DNA of 64,000 bases, from assembly GCF_011250645.1 (NCBI RefSeq), contig NZ_JAANNO010000001.1:1-64000 (forward strand). The letters are read 5' to 3'. Source of the DNA: Motilibacter aurantiacus. Lineage in GTDB: Bacteria; Actinomycetota; Actinomycetes; Motilibacterales; Motilibacteraceae. Below are positions 210 through 8,942 of the stretch, in pieces. How positions within the stretch are numbered: the first letter of the stretch is position 1; every line of letters begins with the position of its first letter. A model generated the notes under the pieces. The model saw nothing but the letters and a program-made list of their open reading frames with translations, did not search any database and had not been told where the DNA came from. Both the position numbers and the translations under genes were made by a program.

Positions 210-1370
210 GTGCGAGATGATGTTGTTGTGGCGGGGCTGCAGGGGTTCTCGACGGTTGGGTCGTTGTCGCGGCTTCGATCGGGTGAGCCGTTCGTGGTGC
301 TGGTGGCTACTGAGCGGGATGAATCGGCGGAGCGGGCTTGGCGAGGTATTGCCGAGCGGCTTGTGGCGCTCGATGACGAGCAGCGGGGCGGCCGGCTCGG
401 GGCTGGGCCGTCGGCAGTGTTCGACCCGGTGCCGGTAACGGGCGGCTACGTGTTCTCCGTCGACACGCATCTCATGACGACCAGGGCCGTGCGTGCGATC
501 CCCGCCCTCGTTTTGCAGGAGTTCGAGGCGGCGGGGTCGGCAGCCGCGCGCGTGTCGGTCCCACAGGCAAGCCGTTGGCTGCGCGCCTTCGCAGGGCGGG
601 TTGGACTGGCAACCCAGGTTCAGCTCTACGGCCCGATGAAGGCTTGGGTCAAAGCGCCCGACGCCCGTCCGCCCGGGCAGCCGCCGTTCCGCGCGGTTCC
701 TTGGACCTCGGATCAACTCGAGCCGTTCACCGCAGCCGCTGCTCGGTGGGTCGGTGAGCGCGGGCCGGTGACCCTGACGCTGGTCGATGACGTTCTCGTT
801 CAGGACGTGCCGCCGGCTGAGGCCGCCCGGGCTGCCCTGCTGCCGCTGTCCGGAGCCGGCGCGATGTGCGTGCTCTACGCCGGGGACGCCACTGGGGACG
901 CCCGAGTAGTGACAGTGAGCTCCATACTCGGGATCGAAGTTATGGCGACCGACGCTGCTCTGAAGCGGGAAGGGTGGGCGCAACGGCTGGGCAACTCGGT
1001 CGAGTACTGGCGGGCGCTCGCACCACACATTTTCTGGGCGGGGGCCGATGTGACCGGCTGCTACGAGTCGGGACACTCGTTCGGTGGCTCGCAGTCGCTG
1101 CTGTCGGCTTTGACCCTGCAGGACGGATCACCGGCACAGACGCTGCATCACCGCGACACACTGATCCCGGACGCCTACTGGTGGCAGGTCCTCAGCCCCA
1201 CTCACCTGGGCCAACTTCCAAAGCTCTCCGAAGGGCAAAGCGCCGCGCTCGACGGGGGACGCCTCGAAGTCCGATACGGAGACGCCGAGCAGTGGTCTGC
1301 TGGCACCGAGGCGCGGGCCGCGATGCGGACGCGTGCCCGGCGTGAGCTCGCGGTCCTCATCCCAGACTGA
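210..1370 (+). CDS. hypothetical protein, 386 aa
   Basis: I do not recognise this protein. It opens with GTG and has a weak purine stretch upstream. There is no signal peptide, membrane span or obvious catalytic motif. The C-terminal half (about residues 225-345) is rich in aromatic residues, with an S-G-H-S-F-G-G-S segment near residue 291. Coding is supported by its length, the absence of an equally plausible antisense gene and a consistent residue mix. It sits alone next to a convergent integrase gene, in a stretch that looks acquired, so it may be cargo of a mobile element. Function unknown. Confidence 0.6.
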   Translation: MRDDVVVAGLQGFSTVGSLSRLRSGEPFVVLVATERDESAERAWRGIAERLVALDDEQRGGRLGAGPSAVFDPVPVTGGYVFSVDTHLMTTRAVRAIPALVLQEFEAAGSAAARVSVPQASRWLRAFAGRVGLATQVQLYGPMKAWVKAPDARPPGQPPFRAVPWTSDQLEPFTAAAARWVGERGPVTLTLVDDVLVQDVPPAEAARAALLPLSGAGAMCVLYAGDATGDARVVTVSSILGIEVMATDAALKREGWAQRLGNSVEYWRALAPHIFWAGADVTGCYESGHSFGGSQSLLSALTLQDGSPAQTLHHRDTLIPDAYWWQVLSPTHLGQLPKLSEGQSAALDGGRLEVRYGDAEQWSAGTEARAAMRTRARRELAVLIPD

Positions 1371-1706: not shown

Positions 1707-2612
1707 TTAGGTGCCGGAGGCCATGTAGGCGGCGAGGATGTAGTTGGGGTGCCGGTCGAGGTTCTTGCGGGCACGGTCATACCGCATCGTGGTCCGTGGG
1801 TCGGCGTGGCGGGCGGCGATCTGGACGTCGCGTAGATCCACCCCAGCATCGAGCATCGTCGTGACGTACGTGTGGCGCAGCATGTGCGGGTGCATCCGGG
1901 GCAGCCGTACCCCGGCGGCCTCGGCGAGGTGGCGGAGCCGGCGGGTGGAGGCGTGCCGGTCCATCCGTCGGCCATAGCGGTTGAGCAGCAGTGCCCCGGC
2001 CTGCCGGTCGCCGCAGGCCCGGTCGACCGCGCGGGAGACGGCCGGCGGCATCGGTACTAGGACGGTCTTGTCGCCCTTGCCGACGACCCGCAGGACCCGG
2101 TGGCCGTGCTCCTCGCCGATGTCGGACAGCGACAGCCCGCAGGCTTCGAACACGCGCAGGCCTAGCAGCCCGAGCAGGCAGACCAGGGCAAAGTCGTACC
2201 GGTTGGCGCTGCCACGGGCGGCGGAGACCAGGGCCTCGAGCTGCAGGTGCGAGAGCCCGAGCGTGGGTGACTCGGGCGGGACATGCGGGCGGCGGACATA
2301 GTCCGCCGGGGAGTGCTCGAGGACGGCGTCGATGACGCAGGTCCGGTAGAACATCGTCACCGTGGACAGGCGTCGGGAGACGGTCGAGGGGCGGTAGTGC
2401 TGGGCCTCCTGCATCCACCGGACGTAGAGCTCGATGTGCGGGCGCCGGGCCTGCAGGGGGTCGAGGCCGCGGGCCTGGCACCACACCAGGTAGGAGCGCA
2501 GGTCCGAGGCGGAGTGAGTGCGGGACTCGCCCTTGTAGCGGGCGAGGTAGGCCGCGACCGCGAGGCGGAGCGGGTCGGCGGCGACGGGCAGGAGCTCGGT
2601 CGAGGTCGTCAT
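1707..2612 (-). CDS. tyrosine-type recombinase/integrase (XerD-like)
   Basis: A site-specific recombinase that breaks and rejoins DNA through a tyrosine-phosphate intermediate. At 301 aa it is a normal single-polypeptide XerC/D-like enzyme. An N-terminal SAM-like core-binding domain (about residues 10-110) precedes the catalytic domain. Catalytic residues are visible: R153 (in GLLGLRVFEACGL), a Lys around 179-182 in the beta-hairpin, H243-x-x-R246 (HMLRH), H269 and the nucleophile Y278 (TTMRYDRA). It is probably intact. Its neighbours are a NERD protein and the Sir2-HerA pair, so it may mark a mobile or defence island. No flanking att repeats could be identified. A housekeeping XerD role is less likely given this context. 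Confidence 0.9.
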   Translation of the reverse strand: MTTSTELLPVAADPLRLAVAAYLARYKGESRTHSASDLRSYLVWCQARGLDPLQARRPHIELYVRWMQEAQHYRPSTVSRRLSTVTMFYRTCVIDAVLEHSPADYVRRPHVPPESPTLGLSHLQLEALVSAARGSANRYDFALVCLLGLLGLRVFEACGLSLSDIGEEHGHRVLRVVGKGDKTVLVPMPPAVSRAVDRACGDRQAGALLLNRYGRRMDRHASTRRLRHLAEAAGVRLPRMHPHMLRHTYVTTMLDAGVDLRDVQIAARHADPRTTMRYDRARKNLDRHPNYILAAYMASGT

Positions 2613-2701: not shown

Positions 2702-3634
2702 TTAGCCGGTGGCGGGCGGGAAGCGGGTGGCCAGGAACTCCGCGAGCAGTTGGCGGTCGTCGGGACCGAGGTCGCCGTTGCGCTTGAGCAGCCTGGCCAG
2801 GCCGCGGCGCCCGACGAGCGGGACGCCGTTGATGCTCTCGCCGAACCAGGGCAGCTCGGTCCCAACGAAGCACAGCGCGCCGCGCACGGGCACGGCCGCG
2901 TCAACGGCATGGAGGGCGGCGGTGACGTCGGCGACCTGGCCGGCGAGGCCGTCCAGCAGCTTGGTCTGGTCACGTCCGCGGATGTAGAGCCGCTCCTGGC
3001 GGGCGGTGAGGAACCCGCCGGACCGGCGGACCTCGAGCTCGCCCTGGTGGGTCTTGGCGTCGATGACCCACACGCCGCTCGGTGTGATGGCGATGTGATC
3101 GATGTTCGCGCGGGACAGCCGGCCGTCCGGGTGGCGGCGCACACGGTCGTGCAGAACCGTCACGTCGTCCAGGCCGTCGAGCTTGGCGGCCACGGCCCGC
3201 TCACCGCGGGCTCCCTGCGCCCACACCCGGGTGGTCGCGGGCTCCTCGCCCAGGGCAAGGATCAGCCCGCCGAGCAGCGGGTGACGGGAACGAACCTGCT
3301 GCTCACGGCGCTGCGACCGACGCTCGTACTCCCGCTGGGCCGACGTCCCCGCCGCGCTCACGGTCGACGCAACCTGGGCTGGTGCATCGTCCCGTACCGG
3401 CCCCGGCACGGGGTGAGCCGGGAGCGCCGGGGGCTCCACGGTCCTCGCCTCCGCGTAGCAGGCGAGGCAGGTCACCCGCCGCAGGCCCGGGTCCCACGCA
3501 GCGCGCGTTCCTGCCTCCAGCGGGCTGAGGCAGCCGCTGCAGGTGTCAGGACGCCGGAGAGCCAGAACACGCACGCCAACGTCGTCGGCCCAAGAGCACC
3601 GAACCTGAGCAGAAGGCCCTGTGCTCAAAGCCAC
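2702..3634 (-). CDS. zinc-ribbon and NERD-domain protein
   Basis: 310 aa. The N-terminus has a likely zinc ribbon with C32-x-x-C35 and C56-x-x-C59. Residues about 140-225 match the NERD (nuclease-related) domain: an ARGER start, then IDHIAITPSGVWVIDAKTHQG, in which the D...DAK pattern corresponds to the restriction-nuclease-like acidic/lysine core. NERD proteins are presumed to act on nucleic acids, but their substrates are mostly unknown. The gene starts with GTG; its ribosome-binding site is weak, so the start is uncertain. It lies 89 bases upstream of the integrase on the same strand, within the presumed acquired region, where a role in mobile DNA or defence is plausible but unproven. Confidence 0.8.
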   Translation of the reverse strand: MALSTGPSAQVRCSWADDVGVRVLALRRPDTCSGCLSPLEAGTRAAWDPGLRRVTCLACYAEARTVEPPALPAHPVPGPVRDDAPAQVASTVSAAGTSAQREYERRSQRREQQVRSRHPLLGGLILALGEEPATTRVWAQGARGERAVAAKLDGLDDVTVLHDRVRRHPDGRLSRANIDHIAITPSGVWVIDAKTHQGELEVRRSGGFLTARQERLYIRGRDQTKLLDGLAGQVADVTAALHAVDAAVPVRGALCFVGTELPWFGESINGVPLVGRRGLARLLKRNGDLGPDDRQLLAEFLATRFPPATG

Positions 3635-3695: not shown

Positions 3696-3899
3696 CTAGT
3701 TCTTCGGCCGACCGCGCCAGTTCAGCTTGGTTGGGGCGCCGGGCTCTGGGATGGAGTCGCTGGCGCCCAGAGCGGTGACCAGAGTCGTCAGTAGCTGATT
3801 GGTCCGACGTTGTTCGTCCACGAGCAGCGCGACGAGGCGCCGGCTCTTCTCGAACTCTGTCGTCAGGACAGCAAGCTCTGCGTTGCTCAGCCCAGCCAT
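3696..3899 (-). CDS. small hypothetical protein, 67 aa
   Basis: A short protein that is mostly predicted helix (residues 5-45, ending in QRRTNQLLTTLVTALG), with a basic tail containing WRGRPKN. It starts with ATG and is read toward the NERD gene. The sequence could be a small DNA-binding or helix-oligomer protein, but no family was recognised. It could also be a chance reading frame. Confidence 0.4.
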   Translation of the reverse strand: MAGLSNAELAVLTTEFEKSRRLVALLVDEQRRTNQLLTTLVTALGASDSIPEPGAPTKLNWRGRPKN

Positions 3900-4499
3900 G
3901 TCACTCCGTCACGTCGAACCGTTGAGGACCAGACTCGCACGGGTGTAGGCGATACCCGCGGGGTGCTCGCAGCGCGGCATGTGGGTGCGTGAGCTGTCAG
4001 ACGCGCCATCAGGCCGGCAGGAGCGCGCTGGCAGCGGGCGGCAGTGATGTCTTCTACATGAGGGCTCGTGAACCAGCCAAGAGGGTCCGGGCGGTAGTCG
4101 AGGCGACAGCGCCCGGACGTTCTCTGCCCAGAGGGAGCTGGCCGACCGCACCGCCACCCACCATGCCGGCCGAGCGTCCCACCTCTCGATGCGAGACCTG
4201 CGGCCGAGACTCGAACGACGACAAGCCGTGCGCCACCTGCGCCAGCTTGCGCCAGTAGACAGGGAGGCTCGGGTTCGTCAAGCGCCTCTGGGTAGGAGCG
4301 GCTCGATGCGCCCCAAGGGCGCCAGTTGCGGGCGAGGCATCGAAGCCGTGATTCTGCGCCAACGTGCGACGGTCCTGAACTAACCTCGGTCGAGACCGAG
4401 GTCGGCAGTTGGAGGCCTGGTGCAGCGCGTGACGTCAAGTAGATCGCAGGTCCAACTTCTCGGAGTCGGGGCCCTACGACAACGAGGGGAAGGGGCCTG
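3900..4499. other. 600-base gap upstream of the Sir2-HerA pair
   Basis: No well-supported gene. The only suggestive stretch is 4163-4258 (+), which could encode 31 residues with two CxxC pairs (RCETCGRDS and KPCATCAS), like a tiny zinc ribbon. It lacks a clear ribosome-binding site. The stretch presumably contains the promoter for the Sir2-HerA operon, but no good -35/-10 pair could be picked. Confidence 0.35.
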
Positions 4500-5897
4500 A
4501 TGACTACCGACGGCACTAAGGGGGAGTTGCAGGAGGCGGCGCCCAAGGGCCTCTTCATCATTGGCGGAACCGTGAAGGAGGTGATCACCACTTCCGAGCC
4601 GAAAATGGTCCGCGAACATCTGAGCTCGCTATTACAGGTAAAGAACCTCGTCGTCCTCCTCGGATCTGGCGCGTCGTTTCACCTGGGCTCGCCGAGAACA
4701 CGCGACCTGACAAACAAGCAGGTTGTGGAACTCATCAAGGACTCAGGTGAGCAGCCGACGGATGGGGATGCTGCACTTCTGAGCACGATCAACCCGACCG
4801 ACAGCGGCGACTTGGAGAAGCTGCTAAATGGTCTCCAACTCGCTGCATCACTGGCGGACCAAGCCGGGCAAGATGCGGTGACGCTCGGGTCGGGCTCCGC
4901 TTCGAAGTCCTACCAAAGAGAAGAAGTTGACGGCCTCAGGCAGCGGATAAACCGGGCGCTAGCCGAAGCATGTCGCTTGCCAAAGGAGAGCGGAGGACGG
5001 GAGGCGCCTTACAACATCGACCCGCTCTTTGCGCATCGGACTTTCCTGTCGCGAATCCTTCGCAGCCGACGCGCGAACCTTGGACGCCCACGGATCTTCA
5101 CGACGAACTACGATCTGGTCATCGAGAGCGCTCTGGATGAGTTGGGCTATCCGTACATCGACGGCTTCAGCGGCACCGTCGACCGGCGCCTGAACCCTGC
5201 GTTCTACGGCCTCGACTTTCATCGGGTCGAGACGACGACGCAGTCCGTACTCGCCCGTGCGGAGGGTGCGCTCTACCTGCACAAGGTTCACGGCAGCCTG
5301 AACTGGCGGTCGAGCAGCAACCGCGATCGGTTGACTGGGCTCGAGTCGGTGGAGGTCAAGCAGAGCAATGCTCCCGCACAAGACGACGAGCTAGTGCTGA
5401 TCTACCCGACGTCGTCGAAGGAGGGTGACACGCTTGCGTACCCGTACTCGGACCTCCTTCGACTGCTCAGCGACGCCGTCCAACAGGAGGACACGGCCGT
5501 GATCGTCGCTGGTTACGGATTCGCGGATCCACACATCAACCGTCTACTGCTTCGCAGCCTCGCAACGAACTCTGCGCTTAGCGTCATCGTCGCCGACCCT
5601 TTCGCAGTACTCGACGACGTCGACATGGCGACTCTCACGTCGGAGGCCGAACATCGGCAACTCGAGGACCTCGACATCACGCCGAAGAACACCGCCATCG
5701 CGGCGCTCGCGAGGGCGAGCGACTCGCGTATAGCGGTACTTACGGGCGAGCACGGCAAGTTCACGGAGTTCGCCCGCCTCATGCCGGGTTCAGCACCGCA
5801 GGGGGAGACCCCGGCGGCTGTCGCAGCGCTGATCGAGGCCCTAGAGCAGGCAGCGCGCGGTAGTGCTCCTGCAATCCCGGGAAGTGAAATCTCGTGA
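4500..5897 (+). CDS. SIR2-family NAD-hydrolase-like protein (Sir2 of a Sir2-HerA system)
   Basis: 465 aa with the features of the SIR2-like family found in anti-phage systems. There is a glycine-rich NAD loop, LLGSGASFHLG (residues 53-63); TTNYD with N203; an HGS motif with H264 (the expected catalytic Asn and His); and a C-terminal GYGFADPHINRLL motif. Such proteins hydrolyse NAD+ or act with partner ATPases to stop phage growth. The stop overlaps the start of the HerA gene, so both are translated together. A rare TTA codon occurs at 4632. The purine-rich GAGGGGAAGGGG lies just before the ATG. Family identity is clear. The anti-phage role is inferred from the pairing and has not been shown for this protein. 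Confidence 0.88.
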   Translation: MTTDGTKGELQEAAPKGLFIIGGTVKEVITTSEPKMVREHLSSLLQVKNLVVLLGSGASFHLGSPRTRDLTNKQVVELIKDSGEQPTDGDAALLSTINPTDSGDLEKLLNGLQLAASLADQAGQDAVTLGSGSASKSYQREEVDGLRQRINRALAEACRLPKESGGREAPYNIDPLFAHRTFLSRILRSRRANLGRPRIFTTNYDLVIESALDELGYPYIDGFSGTVDRRLNPAFYGLDFHRVETTTQSVLARAEGALYLHKVHGSLNWRSSSNRDRLTGLESVEVKQSNAPAQDDELVLIYPTSSKEGDTLAYPYSDLLRLLSDAVQQEDTAVIVAGYGFADPHINRLLLRSLATNSALSVIVADPFAVLDDVDMATLTSEAEHRQLEDLDITPKNTAIAALARASDSRIAVLTGEHGKFTEFARLMPGSAPQGETPAAVAALIEALEQAARGSAPAIPGSEIS

Positions 5898-7972
5898 TGG
5901 AAGCCGGCGGGATCGGGAGTGTGATCGACGTCCGCAGCACGACAATTCGCGTCGCGCTGGATGTTGGATCCAAGGGTTTCACAAAGGTGGGACCCGACGG
6001 ACTTCAGACCGTGGGCGTCGTGAACTCCTACGTCACCGTGCCCGCGGGTGCGCACCGAATAGTGTGCATAGTAACCGGTGTCTACATCAGCGGACGTCAG
6101 GACCAGAAGGGCCAGGGCTCCCTCCTCAGCCAGGACGACGCGGCGACGTACGAACTCGAAGCCACCGTGGTCGGCCGCTTCGAAGGCGACAGGTTCAAGT
6201 CGGGCCTAACCGGGTACCCCCCGCTCCACGCGCCCGTGCTGGCAGCCACGCCGGGCGAGGTGAAGAACATCTTCCTCCCGGAGGGTGGTCCCTCCCTCCG
6301 TATCGGAACGTCAGCGGTCGTTACGGAGCAGGCTGTGCACCTCGACGCGAATCTGCTCTTGGGCCATCACTGCGCCGTCGTTGGCTCCACGGGATCGGGC
6401 AAGTCGTGCACCGTCACCGCCGTCATTGACGGACTGCTGGATCACGAGATCCCAAACGGGCACATCGTCGTCCTCGACATCAACGGAGAGTACGCGCAGT
6501 CCTTCGCCCCCTCGACCAACCGTGGCAAGAGAACGCGCCCGTTGGTGCTCGGCCCTCGGCCCGGCCCGGACTCCGGCCTATTCCTGCCGCACTGGTTCAT
6601 GAATAACGAGGAGCACCTCAACCTTCTGCGTGCGAGCGAAGGAGTACAAGCTCCGGTCCTGCAGCGCGCCATCGCGGATGCGCGACTGGCAGGAACCAAC
6701 AGGGGGACAGACGCCGATCAGCTCGATAATGTCCGATCGACGCTCGGTATTCTCGACGCACTCGGCAAGAACACGATGGATGCGGAGGCGCCCGCTCTTC
6801 GACAGCTTCAGTCGCTCTCGAACGTCCTCGCCAAGAACGCCGCGAAAGACTCGCCGATCAAGGCAAGGTGGCAGCGCATGGCGGATGTCGTGCCGAAGGT
6901 CATCGCGAAGTTGGGTCTTCGGGACAACGTCAAGTACCAGACTCTCACCGCTGAGCACCGAGACCTGCTGGCCAAGCTGACCAACTTCCTGAACACGGAG
7001 ATCACGGCCGGGCTTGGAGAGCTTGGCCTTGGCAGCGGAAGCGCAAGTGCGGACTTCGACGCCCCGGTGTTCTACTCCCTCCAAGCTTTATGTGACATCT
7101 TCCTGCCGGCGCGAGTGCAGTTAGAGCAAGCAGTCGATAGCCGCATCGGCAGCTATGTGGCAACTCTCCAGATGCGCCTGAGTCGACTGCTTGCCGACGG
7201 CAGATACGACTTCATCACGCGGATCGAGAAGCACGAGGATCCGTTGGGCTCGTATCTGAAGGCACTGATGGGGGTTGACCCCACCCACGGTGATGCGACG
7301 TCGGCAGACTGGCCGGCCGCCAAGCACCTTCAATCTCAGGTCGCTGCGCAGGGTGCCGGCCCCTCAGTTACGATCTTCGATCTGAGCCTTGTTGCCAATG
7401 ATGTGTTGGAGAACGTCGCCGCGCTACTCGGCCGCATTCTCCTTGATTTCGCAGTCAGAAGTCAGCCGCGCGCAGAGCACCCGCTCCTCCTGGTGCTGGA
7501 AGAGGCTCACCGATTCATTCCGTCGCGCCAGGACCCCAACGGTGGTTCAGGTCGGTCTGCGTCGATCTTCGAGCGAATCGCCAAGGAGGGGCGCAAGTTT
7601 GGCGTGTCGTTGCTGCTCGCGAGTCAGCGTCCGAGCGAACTCAGCGAGACGGTTGTAGCTCAATGCGGCACCGTCATTGCCCACCGCCTCAGCCATGAGG
7701 CGGACCAGAGCCTGCTCCGGCATGCGACCGCCCTCAGTTCGCGTGCACTACTTGACCAGTTGCCCAGTCTCGCTCAGCAGCACGCGCTCGTGACTGGCGT
7801 CAGCACGGGTGTCCCTGTCGCGGTTCGAGTCCGCGACGTCCAAGACCCGCCGAAGAGCGACGACCCCGACTTCATCAGCACGTGGGGTGATGCCGACAAG
7901 CTGGCAGACCTTGCCCTTCATATCGACAGGGTCGTCGCTGATTGGCAAGCGGGCGATAGTGAGCCTTCCTAA
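5894..7972 (+). CDS. HerA-like DUF87 ATPase (HerA of a Sir2-HerA system)
   Basis: 692 aa with HerA/FtsK-type architecture. The N-terminal beta-barrel-like part (about residues 1-130) is followed by Walker A GSTGSGKS (about residues 163-171). The Walker B LLLVLEEAHRFIP lies near residues 530-545, followed by the sensor and arginine-finger stretch (LLLASQRPSELSETVVAQCG). HerA proteins form hexameric DNA-translocating ATPases. In Sir2-HerA systems the two proteins assemble into a large complex combining NADase, nuclease and helicase activity. The start is either GTG 5894 or ATG 5897; both overlap the Sir2 stop. TTA codons at 7088 and 7121 are unusual for this genome and support horizontal transfer. 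Confidence 0.9.
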   Translation: MMEAGGIGSVIDVRSTTIRVALDVGSKGFTKVGPDGLQTVGVVNSYVTVPAGAHRIVCIVTGVYISGRQDQKGQGSLLSQDDAATYELEATVVGRFEGDRFKSGLTGYPPLHAPVLAATPGEVKNIFLPEGGPSLRIGTSAVVTEQAVHLDANLLLGHHCAVVGSTGSGKSCTVTAVIDGLLDHEIPNGHIVVLDINGEYAQSFAPSTNRGKRTRPLVLGPRPGPDSGLFLPHWFMNNEEHLNLLRASEGVQAPVLQRAIADARLAGTNRGTDADQLDNVRSTLGILDALGKNTMDAEAPALRQLQSLSNVLAKNAAKDSPIKARWQRMADVVPKVIAKLGLRDNVKYQTLTAEHRDLLAKLTNFLNTEITAGLGELGLGSGSASADFDAPVFYSLQALCDIFLPARVQLEQAVDSRIGSYVATLQMRLSRLLADGRYDFITRIEKHEDPLGSYLKALMGVDPTHGDATSADWPAAKHLQSQVAAQGAGPSVTIFDLSLVANDVLENVAALLGRILLDFAVRSQPRAEHPLLLVLEEAHRFIPSRQDPNGGSGRSASIFERIAKEGRKFGVSLLLASQRPSELSETVVAQCGTVIAHRLSHEADQSLLRHATALSSRALLDQLPSLAQQHALVTGVSTGVPVAVRVRDVQDPPKSDDPDFISTWGDADKLADLALHIDRVVADWQAGDSEPS

Positions 7973-8381
7973 TGCGAGGGTTCGCGCTCCGCCAGGTTCG
8001 TCCCGTAGGTACAATTATCGGTAACGCGATTCGCCTGGTCACGCCCGCACTGACAGTCCTATGGCCAGCGGCCAGCGCACCCCACCTATCGGCACTCTCG
8101 CTCACGCCTGCGCCGAATTGCGGCTCTATGTCGCGAACCGCAGGATACCCCCTATCGGGCTGCACGATCATCGGCAGAAGCGGACACGCGCAGCCCGCCA
8201 GGCGAGCGGGTGGCCCAGGACGGGGCGCGAGGTATCCGCAACTTGGGCGAGCGAACCATGGTTGTTGGCATGGCAGGGAGCGCTCGCGGACTTTGCGAGA
8301 GCGGCTGTGGGCCAGCAGGGTTTCAACTCCTGGGCTTCTGCAAGACTTCCCTCGGCCACCCAGCCTCCCCAGGAGGAGATC
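7973..8381. other. 409-base gap downstream of HerA
   Basis: Frames here can be read open, but they have no supported start or family. The base composition is more mixed than in the core genes. It ends with a strong AGGAGGAG ribosome-binding site for the next gene. No terminator hairpin was identified. Confidence 0.35.
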
Positions 8382-8942
8382 GTGAGCCGCAACTCCGAAC
8401 GCAGCGCAACGAGGCAGAGCAGCGGTGAAGAGAGTGAGGGCACCAGCCGCCAGTCTTGGCTGATCCCGGCATTGCTGGGGCTTGGTGGCGTTCTTGTTGG
8501 CGTGATAGCGAGCGTCGGCACGACCACTCTCACGCTGCATGACCAACACAGCGAGACAAGGCGCGAGCAGCGCAGGGAAGCATACGCCAGCCTATATGCT
8601 GCCGTGGCTTCATACTTGAGCGAGATCGGGGTGCAGTCCCAAGTCATCCTAGAGGCTCGCGCAAACCCCCGAGGGCGAGAGCAGGCAATGAAGAGTGCGG
8701 ACGAGGCATTGGACAAGCAGGACGAGGAGATCTTTCGTTCTCAGGCCGTGCTGGTGCTGACAGCAAATAAGTCTGTGTCGGATGCGGCCTTCGATCTCAG
8801 TACGCGGGCCCGGGCAATGCGTGCCGCGCTGACCGCTCCTGACTTGACCAAGCAGACCATCGACCAGCAAATCGACGTGATGTCGCGAGCCCTGGACCGG
8901 TACGCCGTTGATGCAAGACAAGACCTTGGAGTCGCCCCCTGA
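8382..8942 (+). CDS. single-span membrane protein, unknown function
   Basis: The start was set at GTG 8382 because AGGAGGAG (8371-8378) sits just upstream; the frame is open further upstream but that part does not look coding. The 186-aa protein has a polar N-terminus, one membrane helix (WLIPALLGLGGVLVGVIAS, about residues 25-43) and then a long, probably helical soluble tail rich in charged residues (DQHSETRREQRREAYASLYA onward). It resembles the widespread small membrane proteins with a periplasmic or cytoplasmic helical domain often seen beside mobile DNA. It may be accessory to the upstream defence genes or unrelated. Confidence 0.7.
   Translation: MSRNSERSATRQSSGEESEGTSRQSWLIPALLGLGGVLVGVIASVGTTTLTLHDQHSETRREQRREAYASLYAAVASYLSEIGVQSQVILEARANPRGREQAMKSADEALDKQDEEIFRSQAVLVLTANKSVSDAAFDLSTRARAMRAALTAPDLTKQTIDQQIDVMSRALDRYAVDARQDLGVAP

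What the first reader, a model, noticed from the sequence alone, without database searches (positions are those of the whole stretch)
4500..7972. Overlapping Sir2-HerA pair beside an integrase: a candidate anti-phage system
The Sir2 protein has the expected NAD-site residues (N203 in TTNYD, H264 in HGS) and the HerA has both Walker motifs. Stop and start overlap, so they are made as a pair. Rare TTA codons (4632, 7088, 7121) and an integrase plus NERD gene within 3 kb fit an acquired defence island. Sir2-HerA defence is already known as a class; the protein pair here is apparently unstudied. No NADase or anti-phage activity has been shown for this copy.
Basis: partly seen in the sequence, partly recalled or inferred. 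Interest (0 to 1): 0.72.

Follow-up and report, generated by a model that had tools for sequence, protein, structure and literature searches.

The report
Acquired SIR2–HerA anti-phage gene pair
Two overlapping genes here encode an actinobacterial version of a known bacterial anti-virus machine (an NAD-destroying SIR2 enzyme plus a HerA motor), gained by gene transfer; the relatives suggest that it once formed the tail of a larger BREX defence operon and that one block of the motor protein gets swapped between copies.

Summary
SIR2 (4500-5897) and HerA (5894-7972) overlap by 4 bp. The NADase residues (N203, H264) and both Walker motifs are present, as are the three TTA codons. The reading is right in outline: both genes match PADLOC SIR2 and HerA models (7e-65; 2.8e-197), and SIR2's best solved relative by sequence is the E. 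coli SIR2-HerA complex. The pair is acquired: GC3 is 0.74-0.75 against about 0.96 for the host, four confamilial genomes lack it, and HerA copies 65-86% identical sit in other actinobacterial orders. This is a new member of the known SIR2-HerA (Nezha) kind.
Three points go beyond the finding. (1) In three relatives the pair is the 3' tail of a type 1 BREX operon. On plasmids and here it stands alone. (2) The 60 bp before this SIR2 resemble a decayed brxL 3' end (0 of 20,000 random 60-mers score as well), so this copy probably escaped from a BREX tail. (3) HerA residues ~269-385 form a helical block present in three types (24-35% identity between types) inside an otherwise 71-88% identical protein, which suggests a swapped sensor or specificity module. 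Defence activity is untested. The integrase link is not conserved.

The parts
4500..5897 (+). SIR2-family protein, 465 aa, predicted NADase effector (GSGAS 55, TTNYD with N203, HGS with H264)
   Evidence: PF13289 1.9e-11; PADLOC SIR2 7.1e-65; PDB 8j4u_A 4.1e-29
5894..7972 (+). HerA-family ATPase/translocase, 692 aa; HAS-like N-terminal region, Walker A at 164, Walker B at 533
   Evidence: PF01935 2e-22; PADLOC HerA 2.8e-197 over 7-686
6698..7048 (+). swapped helical block of HerA (residues ~269-385), allele type shared with Microcella alkalica only among the seven copies
4441..4500 (+). putative decayed 3' end of brxL (TGATG overlap with the SIR2 start kept)
5894..5897 (+). 4-bp stop/start overlap (GTGA) between SIR2 and HerA
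2702..3634 (-). NERD-domain protein; neighbour, not conserved with the pair
1707..2612 (-). tyrosine recombinase (Xer/phage integrase family); neighbour, not conserved with the pair, host-like codon usage

Best explanation
This is a horizontally acquired SIR2-HerA (Nezha-type) anti-phage module. By family knowledge, twelve SIR2 subunits dock on a HerA hexamer. On infection the HerA-bound SIR2 hydrolyses NAD+ (possibly with nuclease activity) and stops phage replication at the expense of the cell. Shown here: gene pair, intact active-site motifs, family match, presence across orders with a sporadic distribution, BREX-tail position in three relatives, and block-wise divergence inside HerA. Inferred: complex formation, NADase activity, defence, escape from a BREX operon (supported by a brxL-like scar), and the swapped block serving as the infection-sensing or specificity part.
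For: PADLOC SIR2 7.1e-65 and HerA 2.8e-197. PDB SIR2-HerA chain 8j4u_A 4.1e-29, with IFTTNYD and HGSL aligned. HerA matches the solved defence HerAs, including the SIR2-HerA chain 8j4u_M. In all seven copies of this clade both genes are present and adjacent. GC3 0.74-0.75 against 0.957, and 3 TTA codons against 0 in 7,313. Absent from 4 confamilial genomes. In the same-genus genome the flanking genes lie about 205 bp apart. BREX tail in three genomes, with brxC also present. Active-site and herA mutants of the V. cholerae homologue lose immunity (PMC11559045).
Against: No functional data for this copy. NCBIfam equivalog cut-offs for the characterised subfamily are not reached (160.8 of 500 bits; 230.8 of 800). 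AlphaFold models were too poor to test the fold or complex (mean pLDDT 35 for HerA, 38 for SIR2).
Confidence: 0.85

Rival explanations
1. The pair is a BREX accessory effector: it works properly only with BREX (as a backup triggered by BREX failure), and the solitary copy here is a stranded remnant with reduced or no function.
For: In L004-L006 sir2 overlaps or abuts the end of brxL in a type 1 BREX operon. A brxL-like scar precedes SIR2 here. No BREX PglZ found in the host genome: the only hit is a phosphodiesterase-like protein.
Against: Plasmid copies L030 and L031 have no BREX gene annotated next to them; L029 is unannotated and was scanned only for this window's own proteins. All these copies, and the one here, have both ORFs intact. 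Solitary SIR2-HerA systems elsewhere are active alone (PMC11559045, PMC11514479).
Confidence: 0.15
2. The pair is anti-plasmid or DNA-maintenance rather than anti-phage: HerA processes DNA ends and SIR2 signals damage.
For: HerA-family translocases also serve DNA repair; three of seven copies sit on plasmids.
Against: SIR2 partner with NADase residues, sporadic distribution, and far higher scores against defence HerA models than repair HerA models (PADLOC 655 bits; repair HerA 105-115 bits).
Confidence: 0.06
3. The divergence of HerA 269-385 is simply fast drift of a loosely constrained domain, not module exchange.
For: The region has no match in solved HerAs by sequence. Only seven sequences; the window-Microcella grouping also appears in the core tree, and the block's own data do not significantly reject the core topology (p 0.06).
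Against: Within types identity is 68-79%, between types 24-35%, with core identity about equal in both cases, e.g. Nocardioides against window 86% core but 27% block, against Rhodococcus 85% core and 74% block. Internal branches are 0.9-1.26 against 0.03-0.07 in the core while most terminal branches differ far less; the core data reject the block's tree (AU 9e-5). DNA homology stops and resumes sharply at w 6693/7052.
Confidence: 0.2

Closest known systems
SIR2-HerA / Nezha / GAO_19 (E. coli 8j4u, V. cholerae A103, S. thermophilus)
   Same: Two adjacent genes, SIR2 NADase with catalytic N and H (V. cholerae N168/H227; here N203/H264), HerA ATPase with HAS-like N-terminus and Walker motifs; found in defence or mobile contexts
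   Different: Divergent: below the NCBIfam equivalog cut-offs and roughly 28-30% identical to the nearest non-actinobacterial plasmid pairs; HerA has about 240 aa between the two conserved stretches, holding a swappable helical block; chromosomal relatives sit at type 1 BREX tails
HerA-DUF4297 and Hachiman-like ATPase-nuclease pairs
   Same: HerA ATPase paired with an effector (HerA-DUF4297); an insertion in the HerA helix bundle is reported for HerA-DUF4297 (PMC12198126)
   Different: Effector here is SIR2, not DUF4297; the Hachiman ATPase was not compared here
Type 1 BREX with auxiliary effectors (PMC12839542)
   Same: Relatives carry brxC-pglX-(Shedu, YhcG or none)-pglZ-brxL followed by this pair
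   Different: That survey's main text has no SIR2 mention; this window has no BREX genes at the locus

Membership tests
SIR2-HerA (Nezha) defence system | SIR2-family protein with the NADase Asn and His | tested here: met
   N203 in TTNYD, H264 in HGS; aligned with 8j4u_A; invariant in the four aligned copies
SIR2-HerA (Nezha) defence system | HerA ATPase with Walker A/B and HAS-like N-terminus | tested here: met
SIR2-HerA (Nezha) defence system | adjacent co-directional genes, conserved as a pair | tested here: met
   both genes adjacent in all seven copies
SIR2-HerA (Nezha) defence system | 12 SIR2 : 6 HerA complex | not testable with these tools
   models too poor; needs biochemistry
SIR2-HerA (Nezha) defence system | NAD+ depletion and phage protection | not testable with these tools
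   no experiment available
NCBIfam equivalogs NF042942 / NF042943 (characterised subfamily) | curated score cut-off 500 / 800 bits | tested here: not met
   160.8 and 230.8 bits: related, not the same orthologous subfamily
BREX type 1 | PglZ, PglX, BrxC, BrxL at the locus | tested here: not met
   no BREX ORF among those read around the pair; PglZ searched in the genome gave only a phosphodiesterase-like hit; BrxC, PglX and BrxL were not searched genome-wide. Present at L004-L006
DSR1/DSR2, SIR2-APAZ/pAgo, Thoeris | single long SIR2 protein, or pAgo / TIR partner | tested here: not met
   465-aa SIR2 with a HerA partner; only SIR2_2 and HerA/ATPase-type domains found

The most novel reading that the evidence does not exclude
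An actinobacterial SIR2-HerA lineage arose as the tail of type 1 BREX operons, repeatedly escapes as a solitary module, and diversifies by swapping a ~115-aa four-helix block of HerA that acts as the phage-sensing or specificity module, comparable to specificity-domain exchange in other immune proteins.
Probability: 0.3. Interest if true: 0.6.

Novelty: new member of a known kind. Interest (0 to 1): 0.38.

Why it matters
How SIR2-HerA is triggered is listed as unclear (PMC12198126). Naturally swapped blocks inside an otherwise conserved HerA give a ready set of chimaeras to test whether that block sets the trigger. The BREX-tail position suggests a SIR2-HerA backup layer in BREX that the one BREX survey examined here does not mention in its main text.

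Tried and rejected
AlphaFold of SIR2 and HerA from four sequences gave low-confidence models, so no fold search was run; only the HerA helices at 273-376 were mostly better, in blocks of about 48-84 pLDDT. A scan of viral contigs found no HerA relative and only distant SIR2s. Class- and order-wide genome searches found no further close copies: the clade is rare. The idea that the integrase mobilises the pair was set aside: it is absent beside all six relatives and has host-like GC3. No tRNA near the site. A possible general hypervariability of the HerA middle region was tested on three alphaproteobacterial pairs: no block swap there. The brxL-scar test against brxL of BREX without SIR2 was uninformative at DNA level. 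Two mechanistic papers (Zhen 2024, Liao 2024) were not held.

Full report
Observation. The two ORFs are exactly where stated: SIR2 4500-5897 and HerA 5894-7972, overlapping by four bases. SIR2 has GSGAS at 55, TTNYD with N203 and HGS with H264; HerA has Walker A at 164 and a LVLEEAH Walker B at 533. Three in-frame TTA codons are confirmed, against none in 7,313 background codons. An Xer-type tyrosine recombinase and a NERD protein lie on the opposite strand within 3 kb.

Identity. Pfam gives SIR2_2 and the HerA central domain. PADLOC gives SIR2 at 7e-65 and a HerA model at 2.8e-197 over the full length. Among solved structures the best SIR2 match by sequence is 8j4u_A, the SIR2 of a solved SIR2-HerA complex (its HerA is chain M; E. 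coli origin from my own knowledge), with the catalytic Asn and His aligned. HerA matches the solved defence HerAs over residues 6-244 and 486-666, but not in between. NCBIfam equivalog cut-offs for the characterised subfamily are not met, so this is a divergent branch of the same kind.

Acquisition. GC3 of the pair is 0.74-0.75 against about 0.96 for host ORFs; the integrase is host-like at 0.93. The other four genomes held from its order, all in the same family, lack it. In the same-genus genome the narK-like and uroS-like flanking genes lie about 205 bp apart, while here uroS is preceded by 10.6 kb of unshared sequence and narK sits about 5.6 kb from the end of another contig. The contigs are not joined, so island borders are uncertain. 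DNA homology to relatives in Nocardioides, Microcella and Gulosibacter covers only the pair.

BREX link. In those three genomes the pair follows brxL in a type 1 BREX operon: brxC, pglX, optional Shedu or YhcG nuclease, pglZ, brxL. On the M. poriferae and C. glutamicum plasmids the pair has no adjacent BREX genes in the annotation, with type I restriction genes nearby. The R. opacus plasmid record is unannotated; it holds the pair, but I did not scan that locus for BREX. In this window too the pair is solitary, and the genome's only PglZ-domain hit is an unrelated phosphodiesterase-like ORF.

Scar. The 60 bases before this SIR2 align with the last 60 bases before sir2 in the three brxL loci better than any of 20,000 random 60-mers from the window (65 against a best of 51). 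With the Shine-Dalgarno zone removed 9 of 20,000 score as well, and among 151 ORF-upstream regions the next best scores 30 against 59. In the brxL frame it reads RSQVQLLGVGALRQRGEGA-stop against YRQVKAFGVTYIREEESA-stop. The motif RQV.AFGVTYI is native to BrxL: it is present in the Arthrobacter plasmid BREX locus that lacks SIR2 and nearly so in the Rhodococcus qingshengii one, and lies mostly inside the Pfam MIT_C match. The M. poriferae plasmid copy scores 45 in the same test. Against non-SIR2 brxL ends the DNA test is uninformative. I take escape from a BREX tail as likely, not proven.

Swapped block. Across seven HerAs, residues ~269-385 fall into three types: window + Microcella (72%), Nocardioides + Gulosibacter + Rhodococcus + Mycolicibacterium (68-79%), and Corynebacterium. 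Between types identity is 24-35%, while the rest of HerA is 71-88% identical. DNA alignments break at 6693 and resume at 7052 for Nocardioides and Gulosibacter but run through for Microcella. The internal branches that separate block types are more than ten times those of the core, terminal branches differ far less, and the core data reject the block's topology (AU 9e-5). The block's own data do not significantly reject the core topology (p 0.06), so one or two replacements suffice. The model predicts four helices there (273-376), in blocks of about 48-84 pLDDT, although the rest is unreliable. SIR2 is 76-81% identical to its relatives regardless of block type, so the block is unlikely to be the SIR2 interface; sensing or DNA handling is the better guess (inference). 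A control in three alphaproteobacterial pairs, two of them nearly identical, shows no such swap.

Mechanism. Family knowledge: 12 SIR2 and 6 HerA subunits form a complex, HerA binding opens the NAD+ pocket, NAD+ is hydrolysed, and the trigger is unclear (PMC12198126; PMC11559045). V. cholerae N168A or H227A abolish immunity and herA deletion removes it against several phages. All required motifs are present here, so the same mechanism is the best-supported expectation. Activity of this copy is untested.

Verdict. A sound observation and a correct reading; a new member of a known kind, with two features (BREX-tail ancestry and a swapped HerA block) worth a specialist's attention.

Noticed in passing
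window 4441-4500: Putative decayed 3' end of brxL directly before SIR2, with the TGATG overlap kept; a similar trace precedes the SIR2 of the Mycolicibacterium poriferae plasmid (L030, start 12541).
   Followed up: partly
L005 2116-3372; L006 2326-3372: Between pglX and pglZ of the BREX operons sits a Shedu (SduA) gene in Microcella, a YhcG/PDC-S02 nuclease in Gulosibacter and nothing in Nocardioides: a second variable slot in the same operon.
   Followed up: partly
window 3699-3899 (-): Unannotated 66-aa ORF upstream of NERD and integrase on the same strand; no Pfam match.
   Followed up: no
window 210-1370 (+): 386-aa ORF with no Pfam, PADLOC or NCBIfam match at the very start of the contig.
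   Followed up: no
window 8061-8942 (+): 293-aa ORF downstream of HerA with low GC3 (0.71), probably one membrane helix; only weak sub-threshold matches to 1TM effector and LeoBC models.
   Followed up: no
G000 C3:504000-513472 (L024) and C1:1-10630: narK-like gene and uroS-like gene adjacent in the same-genus genome are on different contigs here, each with unshared sequence up to the contig end.
   Followed up: partly
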